Below are positions 2,002 to 12,191 of a stretch of DNA of 16,921 bases, one piece after another. The first letter of the stretch is position 1. Every line of letters begins with the position of its first letter. The notes under the pieces were generated by a model. The model made no database searches. It was not told where the DNA came from and saw only the letters and a list, made by a program, of their open reading frames with translations. Location of the stretch: the NCBI GenBank assembly GCA_010027825.1, contig RGUK01000025.1, positions 1-16,921 on the forward strand, read 5' to 3'. Origin of the DNA: a bacterium. GTDB taxonomy: Bacteria; Dependentiae; Babeliae; Babeliales; RVW-14. The translations under genes and the position numbers were made by a program.

Positions 2002-2067
2002 TGAACTTATTTTATACAAACTTATTTTACACAATTTTTTATTTCGTTGTGCAATGTAATACTAAAC

Positions 2068-2838
2068 ATGGGTAATGTTATCTCCGCTTCAACATCTCAA
2101 CTAGATGCCATGTATCAAACACGCGGCAACTATGCACTCGCCACTCAATTCAGTGGTTTAAATGCCACTGCCAACGCATTACAAAGTACGGCAGGTTCGC
2201 TCTTTACCGCTGTTGGTGGTTTAAATGCCACTGCCGGCACACTCTTCACCGCTGTTGGTAGCTTAAATGCCACTGCAGGCGCCCTACAACAAACGGCCGG
2301 CGCACTACAACGTACGGCTGGCGCCCTCTTTACCGCTGTTGGTAGCTTAAATGCCACTGTAGGCGCGCTTCAAAAGTCACTCATGACCCTGAGTGACAAC
2401 TACAATCCTAGCAGCGGTACACTCAAATTAGGTAATTGGTCTCTCAGAGTCGTTAATGGTGACCTTGCCATTGTTAATAGCTCCGGAAATACTGTCACCT
2501 CATTCAGTCACAATGGCACAGTCAATATGTCCAACAATTGGCGAGTGCGTCCTAATAGCGACTGGCTGAACTTTGAAAAACTAGTCACCTCTGGCAACAC
2601 TTGGGATTGGACCATGGCCATCAAAGAAGATGGCTACTTTGAAGCTAAAGACATTAAATCAAACAAAAACATCAATATAAACGGTATCATACTTTCCAAT
2701 AACTCCAATGTACTTTCCCTTGGCAATAGCATAAAAACCGGAGGAGACATCCTGGCCACAGGAAATGTAAGCGCTGCAAACATTTTGGCCAGCAACGACA
2801 TCAAATCTAAGTATGCTTACGCCTCCAACTTAATTTAA
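2068..2838 (+). CDS. Fibre-like structural protein with MGxxxS N-terminus and LNATAG repeats
   Basis: A 256-residue protein starting at ATG 2068 (MGNVIS). Gly2 and Ser6 match the eukaryotic N-myristoylation consensus. Residues about 10-25 (SQLDAMYQTRGNY) match the equivalent part of the next gene. Residues about 30-100 are seven-residue-like repeats of the type LNATAGxLFTAVG and LQQTAGA, expected to form a fibrous coiled stalk. Residues about 115-256 form a beta-rich head with 'SGTLKLGNWSLRVVNGDLAIVNSSGN' and a repeated Asn/Ser/Ile pattern. Stalk plus head is typical of virus fibres, so host attachment is inferred. The gene may originally have been longer: see the finding on 2831-2907. It is co-oriented with both neighbouring fibre genes. 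Confidence 0.6.
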   Translation: MGNVISASTSQLDAMYQTRGNYALATQFSGLNATANALQSTAGSLFTAVGGLNATAGTLFTAVGSLNATAGALQQTAGALQRTAGALFTAVGSLNATVGALQKSLMTLSDNYNPSSGTLKLGNWSLRVVNGDLAIVNSSGNTVTSFSHNGTVNMSNNWRVRPNSDWLNFEKLVTSGNTWDWTMAIKEDGYFEAKDIKSNKNININGIILSNNSNVLSLGNSIKTGGDILATGNVSAANILASNDIKSKYAYASNLI

Positions 2839-2916
2839 ATCCGGAGACATCGTTCCTGTATGTACGCACATCAACATGCTGCCACTAAATATTTTTTTTA
2901 TTTTGTAAAATTAAAT

Positions 2917-3297
2917 ATGGGTAATTCTCCTAGTTTTACACAATCGCAAGCAGACGAATTGTACCCTAAAATTACACAATACAACTCTCTAAACAATACA
3001 GTCGGCTCCCTTAAATCAACACTTCTTGGGTCTATTGGCAATCTACAAGGCACACTTGACACCCGCATTACCGGAATTGACTCACGTGTTACCAATTTGG
3101 CAAATAGTTTCAATTCAGTCATTGTTTCAACCATTGGTTCGCTCTTCACCACAATTGGGAAGTTAGATCAAAATGTTAACAATCTACAAGGTACTTTTAA
3201 CACACTTGATGGAACTGTTGGTTCGCTCTTCACCACAATCGGGAGGTTAAATCAAAATGTTAACATGGTTCGCTCTTCACCACAATCGGGAGGTTAA
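2917..3297 (+). CDS. Fibre protein, N-terminal part (stalk) of a frame-broken gene
   Basis: A 126-residue frame. The ATG at 2917 gives MGNSPS, again an N-myristoylation-type start. An upstream in-frame ATG at 2860 is less likely, because it would add a segment with no counterpart in the previous gene. The stalk carries repeats of the type VGSLFTTIG(K/R)L(D/N)QNVNNLQGTFNTLDG. The frame ends in an unrelated tail (MVRSSPQSGG) and a stop at 3295-3297, caused by a 47-bp tandem duplication. Without one copy of the duplication it would read straight into the 3360-4067 frame and give a single protein of about 367 residues. It is therefore best read as the 5' half of one split fibre gene. Confidence 0.65.
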   Translation: MGNSPSFTQSQADELYPKITQYNSLNNTVGSLKSTLLGSIGNLQGTLDTRITGIDSRVTNLANSFNSVIVSTIGSLFTTIGKLDQNVNNLQGTFNTLDGTVGSLFTTIGRLNQNVNMVRSSPQSGG

Positions 3298-3312
3298 ATC
3301 AAAATGTTAACA
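3219..3312 (+). repeat. 47-bp tandem duplication that breaks the fibre gene
   Basis: Positions 3219-3265 and 3266-3312 are identical 47-bp copies starting TGGTTCGCTCTTCACC and ending AATGTTAACA. Because 47 is not a multiple of three, the second copy is read in another frame by the upstream gene. In the downstream frame the second copy encodes the same stalk motif, GSLFTTIGRLNQNVNNLQG, and continues without a stop into 3360-4067. Confidence 0.9.
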
Positions 3313-3359
3313 ATCTACAAGGTACTTTTAACACACTTAATGGGAAAGTTGATCTAAAT

Positions 3360-4067
3360 ATGACCATGACCCAACAAACCCTTCAGGACAATAACAATAA
3401 TATACGTAATCAAACATTGTGGTGCGCCACAGGTGAAGTGTGCGAAATCCCTCGCAAAGCCATGTCAAACAATACACTGTGTGTTAAATTTGGGAATGAT
3501 GATGAACCCATCATGTGTATACCAACAATGATGCCTGCAATATTACCTTCCTTAAGAAGCACCATAAGCGCGTATTATGCGACGAAAGCCGGTGGTGGTG
3601 TTATCGAAATCTTGCCCACTGATAACCCTGCCACACGAATTAATAAAATCAATATTGCACTACCTCCAAGTCAAGGTAAATCAGACCTCCTAGGCGCTAT
3701 TGGCTTGCCAGCTCTTAATGGCGTCGGTATGATTATCCTCCCCCCAACTTCTGGACTTGCGTTTGCCATCAATGTTGTCAAGGCGGGTAAATACACATTT
3801 GCTTTCGATGTATTTGGCCCCGCATGGAATAGCGATAGTTTCATCTTAGACTTGACCGGTCCCGGTCAAAATATACAACAGTCAGAATGGTTAGGTGCAG
3901 GTGATGGCCCAAAAATAGTTGAAAAAGTATGGAGAACATTAGATCTCCAGCAAGGATTTTACAAACTTACTATTACTGGCAGAGAACCAACTGGGCTCGT
4001 CAATGTAAAAATTAGACCTGTCACCACTACTGCCCCATCCCCTGCCCCTGCCCCTGCCCCACGTTGA
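3360..4067 (+). CDS. Fibre protein, C-terminal part (head) of a frame-broken gene
   Basis: A 235-residue frame from ATG 3360. The same frame is open and stalk-like back through the second 47-bp repeat copy (to 3267), so this ATG is probably internal to an ancestral gene begun at 2917. Residues 20-60 hold Cys-containing segments (WCATGEVCEIP, TLCVKFGNDDEPIMCIP). Residues about 120-220 look like a beta-sandwich of the carbohydrate-binding type: 'AGKYTFAFDVFGPAWNSDSF' followed later by 'VWRTLDLQQGFYKLTITG'. The tail is a (PA)n stretch. A glycan- or receptor-binding tip is inferred. Whether this half is expressed alone is uncertain, since the region upstream of 3360 does not resemble a promoter. 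Confidence 0.6.
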   Translation: MTMTQQTLQDNNNNIRNQTLWCATGEVCEIPRKAMSNNTLCVKFGNDDEPIMCIPTMMPAILPSLRSTISAYYATKAGGGVIEILPTDNPATRINKINIALPPSQGKSDLLGAIGLPALNGVGMIILPPTSGLAFAINVVKAGKYTFAFDVFGPAWNSDSFILDLTGPGQNIQQSEWLGAGDGPKIVEKVWRTLDLQQGFYKLTITGREPTGLVNVKIRPVTTTAPSPAPAPAPR

Positions 4068-4118
4068 TCACATGTAGTATTTGTGTAATATTTAGTATAC
4101 AAGGTGTTTTTGTACTCG

Positions 4119-5129
4119 TTAGAAATAATCAAGGCCAAGAAGGGCTTGATGCTCTTTTAATTTATTAGCTTTACCTATGTCTATTTTGTTGAAGAATGTT
4201 TGCTTAGGAATAGGTTTTTGCTGTATGCCGAAAAATTGGGAATACAATGCCGCATTATTTTTTCTATCCTTGTTCCATGTGTCTACAAAACGATTGTATA
4301 ACTCAATGGACTCTTTTACTTTATGTATCTCTGAACTTTTTCCTAAACCTCCCATGATTCCCAAGCAAATAAGTAATATATATCTCAGGTGAACCAACGC
4401 GCTCGCTGTGTAACTAAACGCGCGCGATCCACGAAGTCCATCAGCAATGTACACGTCTTGTTTTCCTACACTTAATTTCATCCATTTGTTTACTGAATTG
4501 TTCAACTGGATAATCAAATTGTAGTCTTTCGTAAACCATGCCAAGTTTATCACGTTGCGTACACGACACAACTCCGCATTGCCTTTAGATTCGTTCTCAT
4601 TCCATAGATTAGATTTCCATGTATCATTCATGTTCATATTTTTTGTGCGTAAGTCTGCTGCCCATGCCATCATATAATCTCTTATGCCACGCGGAAGTGT
4701 GTCCATAACAAAACACATTGCAGTAGTCACCCTGAGTAAAATGTCTTGATAATCTGCCGACCAAAACGTCTTTGTCTCTGACAAACTACGCTCTTTCGAA
4801 CACCGTTGTAAGTAATCAACTATCGCAGCCGTATTTTGTTTTACATTAATTTTTGCATGAATCTCCTTCATCATATCATCTAGTACAAACGCCACGTCAA
4901 GATACCTCTTCTTGAAAGCTGCGTTACTCTCTTGTATTTTACGATCTATAATACTATTTGTAGGAGGGTCTTTGTAAGGATTAGGCAAAACAGGCCATAC
5001 CATTGGGAACACAAAGCTCAAGTCACGTGTCGTAAAAGTCTCCCTGGATCTACATGGGGAACCCTGTTTCTGTTTGCACAAAACGAAAATTACGAAAATC
5101 AATAATATATATATCAATTGGCGTGGCAT
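4119..5129 (-). CDS. Membrane-anchored protein with faint polysaccharide lyase 8-like pattern
   Basis: A 336-residue protein. Residues 5-18 (LIYILLIFVIFVLC) form an N-terminal signal anchor, and 249-263 is a second hydrophobic segment. The rest is mostly helical. Residues 184-255 match by eye the pattern at the end of the alpha/alpha toroid of PL8 lyases (hyaluronate/chondroitin lyases; baculovirus ODV-E66 has this fold behind a similar N-terminal anchor): 'N..L..V..VINLA..T.D', a spacer of about 25 residues, then 'DVYIADG' and 'FSYTASALVHL'. The position of the catalytic His is not conserved (DGLRGSRAFSY), although a Tyr remains. The C-terminal beta domains of PL8 enzymes are absent. Any enzymatic role is therefore doubtful; an unrelated virion membrane protein is equally possible. 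It converges with the fibre island. Confidence 0.4.
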   Translation of the reverse strand: MPRQLIYILLIFVIFVLCKQKQGSPCRSRETFTTRDLSFVFPMVWPVLPNPYKDPPTNSIIDRKIQESNAAFKKRYLDVAFVLDDMMKEIHAKINVKQNTAAIVDYLQRCSKERSLSETKTFWSADYQDILLRVTTAMCFVMDTLPRGIRDYMMAWAADLRTKNMNMNDTWKSNLWNENESKGNAELCRVRNVINLAWFTKDYNLIIQLNNSVNKWMKLSVGKQDVYIADGLRGSRAFSYTASALVHLRYILLICLGIMGGLGKSSEIHKVKESIELYNRFVDTWNKDRKNNAALYSQFFGIQQKPIPKQTFFNKIDIGKANKLKEHQALLGLDYF

Positions 5130-5200: not shown

Positions 5201-6439
5201 TTACACACGAGTTGCCAGTTTGGCAGCAAGAGGTTTAGGTGCCTCAGTGTCCGTGGGCGCTTCGCTGTCCGTTGGCGCTTCGCTGTCCGTTGGCGCTTCG
5301 CTGTCCGTTGGCGCTTCGCTGTCCGTGGGCGCTTCGCTATCCGTTTCAGCAGTGTCCGTGGGCGCTTCGCTATCCGTTTCAGCAGTGTCCGTGGGCGCTT
5401 CGGTGTCAGTGTTCTCTTTGTTAACTCCTGTGGCGTCACCCCCAGATTTTTCTTGCTCCAACTCCTGTAAATATGTGATCGCCTGCCTCAATTTATTGCT
5501 ACCGAAACTAGATCGAATGTTGTCAGTGTAGGTTCCTGCGGTGTCCCCTGCGATGTCCCTTGTGGTGTCCCCTGCGGTGTCCCCTGCGATGTCCCTTGTG
5601 GTGTCCCCTGCGATGTCCCTTGTGGTGTCCCCTGCGATGTCCCTTGTGGTGTCCCTTGCGATGTCCCTTGTGGTGTCCCCTGCGGTGTCCCCTGCGGTGT
5701 CCCCTGCGGTGTCCCCTGCGGTGTCCCCTGCGGTGTCCCCTGCGGTGTCCCCTGCGGTGTCCCCTGCGGTTGTATTAGACTTTTTCGCAATTGGTTTCTT
5801 AGCGGCGCTTTTTGCAGGGCTTTTTGCAACAGGTTTCTTTGCAGGGCTTTTGGCCATTGGCTTTTTTGCAGGGCTTTTGGCCATTGGTTTCTTAGCGGCG
5901 CTTTTTGCAACGGGTTTCTTTACAGGCTTCTTTACAGGGCTTTTGGCCATTGGCTTTTTTGAAGGGCTTTTGGCCATTGGTTTCTTAGCGGCGCTTTTTG
6001 CAATTGGTTTATTTACAGGCTTTTTTGCAATTGGTTTCTTTACAGGCTTTTTTGCAGGGCTTTTGGCCATTGGCTTTTTTGCAGGGCTTTTGGCCATTGG
6101 CTTTTTTGCCATAGGTCTTCTTTTAGCCTTCCCTGATGTTTTGTCTTTTGTAAGCTTTGAAAACATTTTTAAACCCTTTTGTACCATCTGTTTCTTGTTA
6201 CCTCCCTTTTGAGTCGAAACAGCTTCGTTAGCTTCGCACCTTATGCACCTGGGATAATACCCACGCTTCATCAAACTGTTTAACGCTCGAGATATTTTTT
6301 TTACTGTGCGCTTTATACTTTTTGGAGGACCCTTGAATGTCAAATTGATGTTGGGTCTCTTGGGAATTCCTGTAGAATCTGTGAGCGAGTCTATAGACCC
6401 CGTAGACCCAAGTGAACCTGCACTATTTAAATTGTACAT
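5201..6439 (-). CDS. Repeat-rich basic/acidic protein, putative DNA-binding core protein
   Basis: A 412-residue protein in clear blocks. Residues 1-100 form a unique N-terminus with basic patches and a CIRC motif (RTVKKISRALNSLMKRGYY, then RCIRCE). Residues 101-221 are Lys/Pro/Ala repeats (KKPMAKSPA type), like histone H1 tails and other SPxK DNA-binding tails. Residues 225-304 are (TAGD)n/TRDIAGD tetrads. Residues 305-335 form a short helical unique segment (LRQAITYLQELEQEK). Residues about 344-400 are acidic SEAPTD/TAETD repeats, and a KPLAAKLATRV end follows. A basic tail on one side and an acidic tail on the other suggests DNA packaging or a nucleoprotein/core role; this is inferred from composition. 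The ATG at 6437-6439 is the first in frame. Several long open frames on either strand within the repeats are shadows. Confidence 0.6.
   Translation of the reverse strand: MYNLNSAGSLGSTGSIDSLTDSTGIPKRPNINLTFKGPPKSIKRTVKKISRALNSLMKRGYYPRCIRCEANEAVSTQKGGNKKQMVQKGLKMFSKLTKDKTSGKAKRRPMAKKPMAKSPAKKPMAKSPAKKPVKKPIAKKPVNKPIAKSAAKKPMAKSPSKKPMAKSPVKKPVKKPVAKSAAKKPMAKSPAKKPMAKSPAKKPVAKSPAKSAAKKPIAKKSNTTAGDTAGDTAGDTAGDTAGDTAGDTAGDTAGDTTRDIARDTTRDIAGDTTRDIAGDTTRDIAGDTAGDTTRDIAGDTAGTYTDNIRSSFGSNKLRQAITYLQELEQEKSGGDATGVNKENTDTEAPTDTAETDSEAPTDTAETDSEAPTDSEAPTDSEAPTDSEAPTDSEAPTDTEAPKPLAAKLATRV
5251..5409. repeat. 18-bp (and 15-bp) tandem repeats, acidic block
   Basis: Units of CCGTGGGCGCTTCGCTGT and one-base variants repeat in tandem, interrupted twice by a 15-bp CCGTTTCAGCAGTGT unit. 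All units keep the frame and encode the SEAPTD/TAETD repeats of the minus-strand gene. Confidence 0.85.
5536..5771. repeat. 12-bp tandem repeats, AGDT block
   Basis: About twenty 12-bp units of GTGTCCCCTGCG and variants (GATGTCCCTTGT) encode the tetrad AGDT/TRDI on the minus strand. Variants are arranged in higher-order pairs at 5541-5670, while 5680-5771 is nearly homogeneous. This suggests recent expansion at one end. Confidence 0.85.
5790..6115. repeat. Imperfect Lys/Pro/Ala-coding repeats, basic block
   Basis: Imperfect repeats built from TTTGCAGGGCTTTTGGCCAT and related units, with lengths in multiples of three, encode KKPMAKSPA-type repeats on the minus strand. They are more diverged than the 12-bp array next to them. 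Confidence 0.75.
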
Positions 6440-8376: not shown

Positions 8377-9291
8377 ATGGGCATTGGTACAATTACCATC
8401 AACAACTTCTACAAGAGACCCGAATACGAGTTTCAATGTAATATCCCACTTGATACTTCCATTTTTAAAAATAATGCGGTGACAGAAATGTATAACCAAA
8501 TCATTGATGGCCACAAGCTCATTGTCATAAGTAAACTCATTAGCACACTTGAACCCGACTTTGTGTACACAAACGGATTGTGGTTCTACTTTACAGGAAA
8601 CTACTGGAAACGCGACGATGAAGCACTTTTTTTACGCACTCGAGTACTAAGCGTCGTGGTGTCCAACCTTCAAAAAATTGTTCAGTTTTACAAAGACACC
8701 GCCTTGGCTGGTGGTAGTGTGGCCCGCAATGTAAAGTGCTTGATTAACAAAATGCATAAACCCGAGGTTGTCGAAGAAATCATCCAAGGAGCTAAAATGT
8801 ACTACTTTGACGAATCCCTTTTCGAAAAACTAGATACACGCAACCACCTCGTGCCATTCACCAATGGCGTGTATGACCTCCTCCATTGCACCTTTCGCAA
8901 AACAACAAAAATGGACCTTGTTTCAAAAACCACCAAGTACAAGTACAACCCAGATGCCAATGATCACTCCGTAAATACACTTTTAATTGAATGTATTCCC
9001 GACGAAACACATCGTACCCAAGTCCTTAAGAAATTGTGCGAATACCTCAATCGCGACATCAGTAACCCAGGAATCTGCTTCAATATCGACACACCTCTTC
9101 TAAACCTCATGAAGTCCACACTCGGTGAAATCTACCCCCGCAAACGCCCAAACAAACGCACAAAAACTATTGAACTTCCACGCCCACGACAAACCCAAAT
9201 ACTCGTACATTTCACCGACGTCAAAGTACGCCAAACTTTCATGAATATCCTTATAAGAACCTACTCCGAGTACATCAAGTGTGTACACTAA
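8377..9291 (+). CDS. D5_N-like primase-helicase fragment lacking the helicase P-loop
   Basis: A 304-residue protein. Residues 62-82 (FVYTNGLWFYFTGNYWKRDDE) and 157-190 (HLVPFTNGVYDLLHCTFR...TKYKYNP) match the D5_N region of NCLDV D5-type primase-helicases ('W..F.g..W', 'l.f.NGVyDl....fR'). Full D5 proteins continue into an SF3 helicase with a Walker A of the type GxxxNGKS. At the matching place here, residues 232-252 read GICFNIDTPLLNLMKSTLGEI: the flanking 'LLNLMK.TLGE' is kept, but the Gly-Lys-Ser core is missing. The frame then ends within about 50 Lys/Arg-rich residues. It is therefore a truncated or repurposed paralogue without ATPase activity. The ATG is preceded directly by GTACAC, as for the gene at 14700. 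Confidence 0.65.
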   Translation: MGIGTITINNFYKRPEYEFQCNIPLDTSIFKNNAVTEMYNQIIDGHKLIVISKLISTLEPDFVYTNGLWFYFTGNYWKRDDEALFLRTRVLSVVVSNLQKIVQFYKDTALAGGSVARNVKCLINKMHKPEVVEEIIQGAKMYYFDESLFEKLDTRNHLVPFTNGVYDLLHCTFRKTTKMDLVSKTTKYKYNPDANDHSVNTLLIECIPDETHRTQVLKKLCEYLNRDISNPGICFNIDTPLLNLMKSTLGEIYPRKRPNKRTKTIELPRPRQTQILVHFTDVKVRQTFMNILIRTYSEYIKCVH

Positions 9292-9311
9292 AACAAGTGT
9301 GTACACTAAAA
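9276..9311 (+). repeat. 18-bp tandem repeat spanning the stop codon
   Basis: CAAGTGTGTACACTAAAA occurs at 9276-9293 and again at 9294-9311. The first copy encodes the last residues and stop of the D5_N gene. Each copy contains the palindrome GTGTACAC, and further AGTACACAG copies follow at 9312 and 9370. Confidence 0.8.
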
Positions 9312-9951: not shown

Positions 9952-10236
9952 ATGGTTCACTGGGAAGCAACATTCCACAATTTGAAATGCATTCTTGGGT
10001 TCTACATACATACCTACATAGCAAAGTACGTACCACAGTACGTGTACACCTTACGTGCACCTTCGGTGACTGCACCTTCGGTGACTGCACCTTCGGTGAC
10101 TGCACCTTCGGTGACTGCACCTTCGGTGTCCCGTGTAAACTTACCCACCTCCACCTCCTCCCCCAGACATCATCATCCCGGCGCTCGACATACTAATTAT
10201 ACTTATCACACAAAATATAATGCAACTTACTACTAA
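9952..10236 (+). CDS. Doubtful small reading frame with (APSVT)5 repeats
   Basis: A 94-residue frame from ATG 9952 in a good eukaryotic context (AAAAATGG). An aromatic, hydrophobic start (FHNLKCILGFYIHTYIAKYV) is followed by five APSVT units encoded by the 15-bp repeat array, then a Ser/His/Tyr-rich tail. Its end overlaps the last 96 nt of the better supported minus-strand gene at 10141. The 15-bp array keeps several frames open, so this could be chance. No similarity is recognised. Confidence 0.2.
   Translation: MVHWEATFHNLKCILGFYIHTYIAKYVPQYVYTLRAPSVTAPSVTAPSVTAPSVTAPSVSRVNLPTSTSSPRHHHPGARHTNYTYHTKYNATYY
10056..10130. repeat. Five 15-bp tandem repeats with internal dyad
   Basis: TGCACCTTCGGTGAC repeats five times (10056-10070, 10071-10085, 10086-10100, 10101-10115, 10116-10130). 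The first four are perfect and the last ends GTC. Each unit contains the dyad CACC-TTC-GGTG, so the array could fold into a row of short hairpins. It lies between two minus-strand membrane-protein genes, in the upstream region of the 9522-9911 gene. Confidence 0.9.
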
Positions 10237-11940: not shown

Positions 11941-12101
11941 ACCCCGGACAAGCCTTGGCACCCCGGACAAGCCTTGGCACCCCGGACAAGCCTTGGCACC
12001 CCGGACAAGCCGGGGACTTGGTACACACGCCTAGGAAGCTGGCTGGAGAACCCCGGACAAGCCTTGGCACCCCGGACAAGCCGGGGACTTGGTACACACG
12101 C
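11941..12101. repeat. 19-bp GC-rich tandem repeats with a duplicated 52-bp block
   Basis: ACCCCGGACAAGCCTTGGC repeats from 11941 (11941-11959, 11960-11978, 11979-11997) and ends in the variant ACCCCGGACAAGCCGGGG (11998-12015), followed by ACTTGGTACACACGC. The block from 11979 to 12030 is copied at 12050-12101. The variant CCCCGG-ACAAG-CCGGGG can form a 6-bp stem with a 5-nt loop, and does so twice. This fills most of the 389-nt gap between the divergent RING-H2 and SNF2 genes (11803-12191), where I see no gene; open frames there are repeat products. Confidence 0.85.
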
Positions 12102-12163: not shown

Positions 12164-12191
12164 CGTGCCAAAGTTTACACACGCCCTAAAA

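What the first reader, a model, noticed from the sequence alone, without database searches (positions are those of the whole stretch)
2917..4067. A 47-bp tandem duplication splits one fibre gene into two frames
Two identical 47-bp copies (3219-3265, 3266-3312) shift the frame by two. The first frame ends at once in an alien tail, while the second copy re-enters the same stalk motif in the frame of the 235-residue head protein. Removing one copy joins both into one protein of about 367 residues. Because the change is exact and reversible by recombination or slippage, it could be an on/off switch for a receptor-binding fibre head, comparable to phase variation. It could also be a fixed mutation or an assembly error.
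Basis: seen in the sequence. Interest (0 to 1): 0.75.

Follow-up and report, generated by a model that had tools for sequence, protein, structure and literature searches.

The report
Split viral fibre gene, 47-bp duplication
In a DNA contig that is likely from a giant virus, an exact 47-bp tandem duplication puts the stalk and the head of what is probably one fibre gene into different reading frames, most likely an ordinary frame-breaking mutation (or an assembly error) rather than a proven on/off switch.

Summary
Two identical 47-bp copies (3219-3265, 3266-3312) abut exactly, and 47 is not a multiple of three. The stalk frame (2917-3297) ends ten residues after copy 1. The head frame opens at 3264, inside copy 1, and its first ATG (3360) lies within the stalk.

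The stalk has 84-nt units of 28 residues (four heptads). Of 13 exact tandem arrays inside genes of the window, the 47-bp one alone has a period that is not a multiple of three.

That the halves were one gene is supported twice: a paralogue with stalk and head in one frame lies directly upstream, and remote relatives carry single-frame fibre-like genes with the same hinge motif.

An on/off switch is not shown. No single-frame version of the head was listed from 5.8 billion proteins, the junction has no microhomology, and reads could not be examined. The blunt, perfect junction is also what an unmerged contig overlap would leave. Splicing and frameshifting have little support. Verdict: likely a recent frame-breaking duplication, with an assembly error the main rival; modest interest.

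The parts
2068..2838 (+). Upstream paralogous fibre-like gene, stalk and head in one open frame (256 aa, starts MGN)
   Evidence: BLASTP to the first half 32% over 127 columns, E 3e-13
2917..3297 (+). First half: MGN start, coiled-coil stalk, then ten alien residues and stop (126 aa)
3135..3218 (+). Stalk unit 1, 84 nt = 28 residues = 4 heptads
3219..3265 (+). Copy 1 of the 47-bp tandem duplication
3266..3312 (+). Copy 2 of the 47-bp tandem duplication, identical to copy 1
3266..3349 (+). Last 84-nt stalk unit, read in the head's frame
3264..4067 (+). Second half: open frame with the end of the stalk, hinge motif LWCATGEVCEIP and head; first ATG at 3360 (235 aa)

Best explanation
What is likely one fibre gene of a probable giant virus holds an exact 47-bp tandem duplication in its repeat stalk that puts stalk and head into different reading frames, most likely a recent frame-breaking mutation that would leave a headless fibre. 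Shown: the exact duplication, the two frames, the heptad pattern of the repeat units, the single-frame paralogue upstream and single-frame fibre-like genes in remote relatives. Inferred: that this is a giant virus, that the protein is a receptor-binding fibre, and that the main product is a short stalk ending in ten alien residues. The head would be made only if translation starts inside the stalk (first ATG 3360), or from genomes without the duplication. A perfect 47-bp direct repeat could in principle be lost again precisely, but nothing here shows that it is.
For: Exact repeat and frames. From unit 1 through copy 1, 12 of 12 a/d positions are hydrophobic, against 2 of 31 others, in the best of seven registers; a 47-nt step breaks frame and heptad register. 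12 of 13 exact in-gene tandem arrays have a period that is a multiple of three; the 47-bp one is the exception. Upstream paralogue in one frame. Two distinct single-frame fibre-like genes in a relative found through its D5 gene, with stalk, hinge WC[AG]DG..CK.P and head. The copies are identical while the 84-nt units differ at 7 of 84 bases, which suggests that the 47-bp event is younger.
Against: One contig only; an assembly error leaves the same trace. The head has no relative in the database, so the one-gene claim rests on the paralogue, a 14-residue hinge and the shared stalk repeat. The relatives are remote: of 19 window proteins only the D5 protein matched the six loci by tblastn. The heptad pattern is much weaker outside the repeat units: 9 of 15 against 7 of 38 in the head frame up to the hinge, 9 of 14 against 9 of 35 in the proximal stalk. 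The in-gene arrays are not independent (7 of 13 lie in one gene, some overlap), and Tandem Repeats Finder also lists three poor arrays of period 14 (60-71% matches) in that gene.
Confidence: 0.5

Rival explanations
1. Assembly error: two contig ends that overlapped by 47 bp were likely concatenated without merging, in a repeat array, so the real genome would have an unbroken gene.
For: The duplication is perfect, has exactly 2.0 copies and a junction without microhomology, as an unmerged overlap would give; it lies in an imperfect 84-nt repeat array, where assemblies can break (general knowledge). It is the only exact in-gene tandem array of 13 that breaks the frame.
Against: The window is rich in other exact short tandem arrays, including another blunt two-copy one of 18 bp at 9276-9311, so real duplications may occur here. 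There is no run of N at the joint. How the contig was assembled is unknown.
Confidence: 0.28
2. Phase-variation-like switch: the 47-bp duplication would be gained and lost at high frequency in the virus population and turn the fibre head off and on.
For: A perfect direct repeat in a fibre-like gene is a plausible substrate for precise loss; spontaneous, reversible sequence duplications are reported for pneumococcal capsule genes (passages of PMC4243769).
Against: No microhomology that would favour repeated formation. No reads. Caveat: the head's own 90% cluster holds a second sequence that could not be read.
Confidence: 0.12
3. Recently born intron: a tandem duplication of a segment with AGGT can supply GT and AG splice sites, so the extra segment would be spliced out of the mRNA.
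For: Each copy holds one AGGT; the AGGT duplication model of intron gain is described in the abstract of PMC4974935. Splicing in a giant virus is known: a Faustovirus capsid gene (PMC6247863, title and start of abstract in the listing).
Against: 2440 of 13818 (17.7%) 47-nt sense segments of this window's genes hold AGGT anyway, segments of the copies themselves included. I saw no other plainly interrupted gene in the ORF list (not tested systematically). Nucleocytoviruses generally lack spliceosomal introns, with exceptions such as pandoraviruses and some chloroviruses, and mirusvirus introns peak near 80 bp (passages of PMC12768974).
Confidence: 0.04
4. Recoding: the ribosome would shift by -1 in the 3264-3297 overlap of the two frames, or hop between the identical copies, and make the long protein in part of the rounds.
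For: The two open frames overlap by 34 nt, stop codon included, and the copies offer identical codons 47 nt apart.
Against: No X XXY YYZ slippery site starts at 3231-3300; folding of 3219-3359 is unremarkable, z -1.48, 17 of 200 shuffles as good; no Rfam match in 2800-4200.
Confidence: 0.03
5. Two real genes: a stalk protein and a separately started 235-residue head protein.
For: The head frame has an ATG at 3360 with 235 residues behind it. The A/T fraction of the 40 bases before it, 0.70, is within the range of 15 other starts (0.55-0.90).
Against: That ATG lies in the stalk; the longest A/T run before it is 6, as short as or shorter than in 14 of 15 other starts; the paralogue and the relatives' fibre-like genes are single frames.
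Confidence: 0.03

Closest known systems
Reversible sequence duplications in pneumococcal capsule genes (serotypes 3, 8, 37), seen as passages and reference titles in PMC4243769
   Same: A sequence duplication inside an open frame that silences a surface-structure gene and can be lost again.
   Different: There reversibility and phase variation are reported; here there is one contig, no second allele and a probable virus of eukaryotes.
[quoted passage not shown]
   Same: Tandem duplication of a coding segment that holds AGGT.
   Different: No transcript here; an AGGT is found in 17.7% of segments of this size.
Single-frame fibre-like genes of IMG/VR contigs of samples 3300027260, 3300027261 and 3300027314 (L002-L004)
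   Same: MG start, stalk, WC[AG]xGxxC hinge, head, in a locus with a D5-type gene.
   Different: Single open frame, another stalk sequence, no BLASTP similarity to the window's head beyond the hinge.
Coiled-coil fibres in general, for example phage fibritin (weak match of the first half to phrog_1056, E 0.003)
   Same: Heptad stalk between an anchor end and a head.
   Different: Similarity of coiled-coil type only; no homology shown. The first half also matches Baculo_PEP_C (E 4.5e-7, 30.5 bits, below its cut-off of 38) and phrog_7303 (E 2.4e-5), probably for the same reason.

Membership tests
Phase-variable gene (reversible tandem duplication) | Repeat whose unit number decides the reading frame | tested here: met
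   47 nt, remainder 2 modulo 3; frames 2917-3297 and 3264-4067
Phase-variable gene (reversible tandem duplication) | Both forms present in the population | not testable with these tools
   No reads; only the window's own version found; the exact upstream fibre protein is on 4 contigs, the other ones could not be read
Phase-variable gene (reversible tandem duplication) | Interconversion at measurable frequency | not testable with these tools
   Needs a virus culture or a time series
Spliceosomal intron born by duplication | GT and AG borders supplied by AGGT in each copy | tested here: met
   One AGGT per copy, but 2440 of 13818 segments of that size have one
Spliceosomal intron born by duplication | Spliced transcript | not testable with these tools
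   No RNA data
Programmed -1 frameshift | Slippery heptamer in the overlap of the frames | tested here: not met
   No X XXY YYZ start in 3231-3300
Nucleocytoviricota (giant viruses) | Hallmark genes such as D5 helicase-primase and major capsid protein | tested here: inconclusive
   D5_N (E 7.4e-12), SNF2 helicase and polyprenyl synthetase found; no capsid family among the matches of the 19 sequences scanned
Receptor-binding fibre | Trimeric stalk with receptor-binding head | tested here: inconclusive
   Heptad pattern met in the repeat units; trimer and binding not tested; head model poor (mean pLDDT 48.1), best Foldseek match a collagen-binding domain (E 7.3e-5, TM by query length 0.30)

The most novel reading that the evidence does not exclude
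A giant virus switches the head of a surface fibre off and on by gaining and precisely losing a 47-bp tandem copy inside its coiled-coil stalk: phase variation of a fibre in a virus of eukaryotes.
Probability: 0.1. Interest if true: 0.7.

Novelty: new member of a known kind. Interest (0 to 1): 0.27.

Why it matters
If the duplication is real and polymorphic, it would be a length-based switch of a surface fibre in a virus of eukaryotes. A full-text search for 'giant virus' with 'phase variation' listed 9 papers; none reports this by its title or the start of its abstract, which is all I saw. If it is a fixed mutation, it shows a fibre gene caught while breaking beside a single-frame paralogue. 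If it is an assembly error, it warns that fibre stalk repeats in contigs can look like split genes.

Tried and rejected
Relatives of the head: 1 protein listed among 430 candidates, the window's own. Upstream fibre: 1 of 3585 candidates, its own. IMG/VR: no relative of the head, SNF2 helicase, upstream fibre or first half. No match of 2047-4067 in phage records. A degenerate stalk pattern: 0 IMG/VR stretches. GTDB genomes: none for the D5 relative P0004. A first hinge pattern had the wrong spacing (4 stretches, not used). The corrected one gave 36 stretches; 3 (L027, L029, L036) hold a fibre-like gene, and these are the contigs already held as L002-L004; in what one search printed of the other 33, none looked like a fibre (some were not printed, as the motif is not read through there).

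PDB by sequence: 1 match, E 0.77. The structure of the head piece alone came out poor, so its fold matches are only a lead; that table does not say which part of the model was aligned. Rfam: 0 in 2800-4200; tRNA: 0. Bacterial-type promoter and terminator scan: uninformative. Ribosomal frameshift: no slippery site. Paper searches were seen as listings; abstract and outline of PMC4974935, passages of PMC4243769, PMC12768974 and PMC10218751 (the last, on microhomology in yeast, was not used). One search listed 10 of 28 papers; by title none concerns such a switch in a giant virus.

In my start list one start is 3 bases off (1633 used, ATG at 1630), and the GTG starts at 12165 and 8514 were left out of the A/T-run check.

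Full report
Observation. The two 47-bp copies are exactly as described. The period-47 match stops at once on both sides, so the junction has no microhomology. The first frame, from ATG 2917, runs through copy 1 and ends after MVRSSPQSGG; the second frame opens at 3264 and ends at 4067; its first ATG, 3360, gives 235 residues.

Anatomy. The stalk holds 84-nt units (3135-3218 and 3266-3349, 7 of 84 bases different) with the 47-nt piece between them. One unit encodes 28 residues, four heptads; from unit 1 through copy 1, 12 of 12 a/d positions are hydrophobic, against 2 of 31 others, in the best of seven registers. Outside the repeat units the pattern is weaker: 9 of 15 against 7 of 38 in the head frame up to the hinge, and 9 of 14 against 9 of 35 in the proximal stalk. 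From one contig it cannot be told whether 47 nt were gained or part of a unit was lost. I listed exact tandem arrays (period 4 or more, at least 16 nt) and sorted them by genes that I chose from the ORF list: 13 lie inside genes, and 12 of these have a period that is a multiple of three; the 47-bp array is the only exception. 7 of the 13 are in one low-complexity gene (5201-6439) and some overlap, so they are not independent. Of 5 arrays outside or at the edge of genes, 3 have periods that are not multiples of three. Tandem Repeats Finder adds, inside 5201-6439, three poor arrays of period 14 with 60-71% matches.

Were the halves one gene? Three lines say so. (a) The gene directly upstream, 2068-2838, has the same MGN start and stalk type as the first half (32% over 127 columns, E 3e-13) and carries stalk and head in one frame. 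(b) With an alignment of D5 proteins six IMG/VR loci were found. Three of the six (L002-L004; the 285-residue gene is identical in L002 and L003 and in the printed parts of L004, so evidently one virus kind) have fibre-like genes in one frame: MG start, stalk, hinge LWCADGGVCKMP, head; L002 has a second one with MWCGDGDYCKLP. The second half of the window's gene has LWCATGEVCEIP between stalk and head (9 of 14 identical, E 1e-4 for the single comparison, nothing else alike). The hinge pattern occurs 0 times in 50 shuffles of 199,732 residues, but I wrote the pattern after seeing the matches. L001, L005 and L006 have no such motif. The upstream fibre and L002's second fibre are weakly alike (19% over 150 columns, E 0.001). 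(c) The ATG at 3360 lies inside the stalk, and the A/T runs before it are short (longest 6; of 15 other starts one has 5, one 6, 13 more), although its A/T fraction, 0.70, is ordinary.

What the contig is. D5_N, SNF2 helicase, RING fingers and polyprenyl synthetase and the D5 relatives, of which the one in L002 has a UL52-type primase domain in the same protein, suggest a giant virus. No capsid family was among the matches of the 19 sequences scanned, so this stays an inference. Of 19 window proteins only the D5 protein matches the six loci by tblastn at E 1e-3. The host is unknown.

Switch or not. A switch needs both forms in one population. No close relative was found in IMG/VR. Reversible duplications of this kind are reported from pneumococcal capsule genes (passages of PMC4243769), so the idea is reasonable but untested.

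Assembly error. A perfect, blunt, two-copy duplication inside a repeat array is what an unmerged overlap of two contig ends would leave. Against this, the window holds many exact tandem arrays, including a second blunt two-copy one at 9276-9311, and no N at the joint. I cannot decide without reads.

Splicing and recoding. Each copy holds one AGGT, so GT...AG borders exist, as in the AGGT model of intron gain (abstract of PMC4974935); but 2440 of 13818 segments of that size do. Nucleocytoviruses generally lack such introns, with exceptions such as pandoraviruses and some chloroviruses (passages of PMC12768974); a spliced Faustovirus capsid gene is on record (PMC6247863, listing). There is no slippery heptamer, no unusual fold (z -1.48) and no Rfam match.

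The head. Without relatives, the model is poor (mean pLDDT 48.1; the blocks from about residue 131 on score 49-73). The best Foldseek matches are collagen-binding domains (E 7.3e-5, TM by query length 0.30), with carbohydrate-binding modules further down. That would fit a binding head, but a model of this quality proves nothing.

Verdict. A recent, frame-breaking duplication in a fibre-like gene is the most likely reading (0.5), an assembly error the main rival (0.28), a switch possible but unsupported (0.12; 0.1 with the giant virus included).

Noticed in passing
8377-9291 (+): A short D5-type protein (304 aa). It and two relatives of similar length (P0004 and P0005, 61% and 57% identical) lack the GDGANGKS stretch that P0006-P0008 have; possibly a conserved, non-catalytic D5 relative.
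   Followed up: partly
P0004, longest contig 79,220 bases: A D5 relative filed in NCBI under 'bacterium' (EB118_08810); its contig is perhaps viral.
   Followed up: no
5201-6439 (-): A 412-residue low-complexity protein with AKKPMAKSP and GDTAGDT repeats and seven exact tandem arrays, each with a period that is a multiple of three.
   Followed up: no
3257-3266: The copy junction creates a perfect 10-bp palindrome, ATGTTAACAT, whose 8-bp core ends copy 1; read by eye.
   Followed up: no
9276-9311: A second exact, blunt two-copy tandem duplication (18 bp), across the end of the D5-type gene.
   Followed up: no
11941-12011 and 10056-10128: Exact intergenic arrays of 19 bp x 3.7 and 15 bp x 4.9.
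   Followed up: no
2917-3297: The first half matches the baculovirus envelope-protein family Baculo_PEP_C at E 4.5e-7, below the curated cut-off; perhaps only coiled-coil likeness.
   Followed up: no
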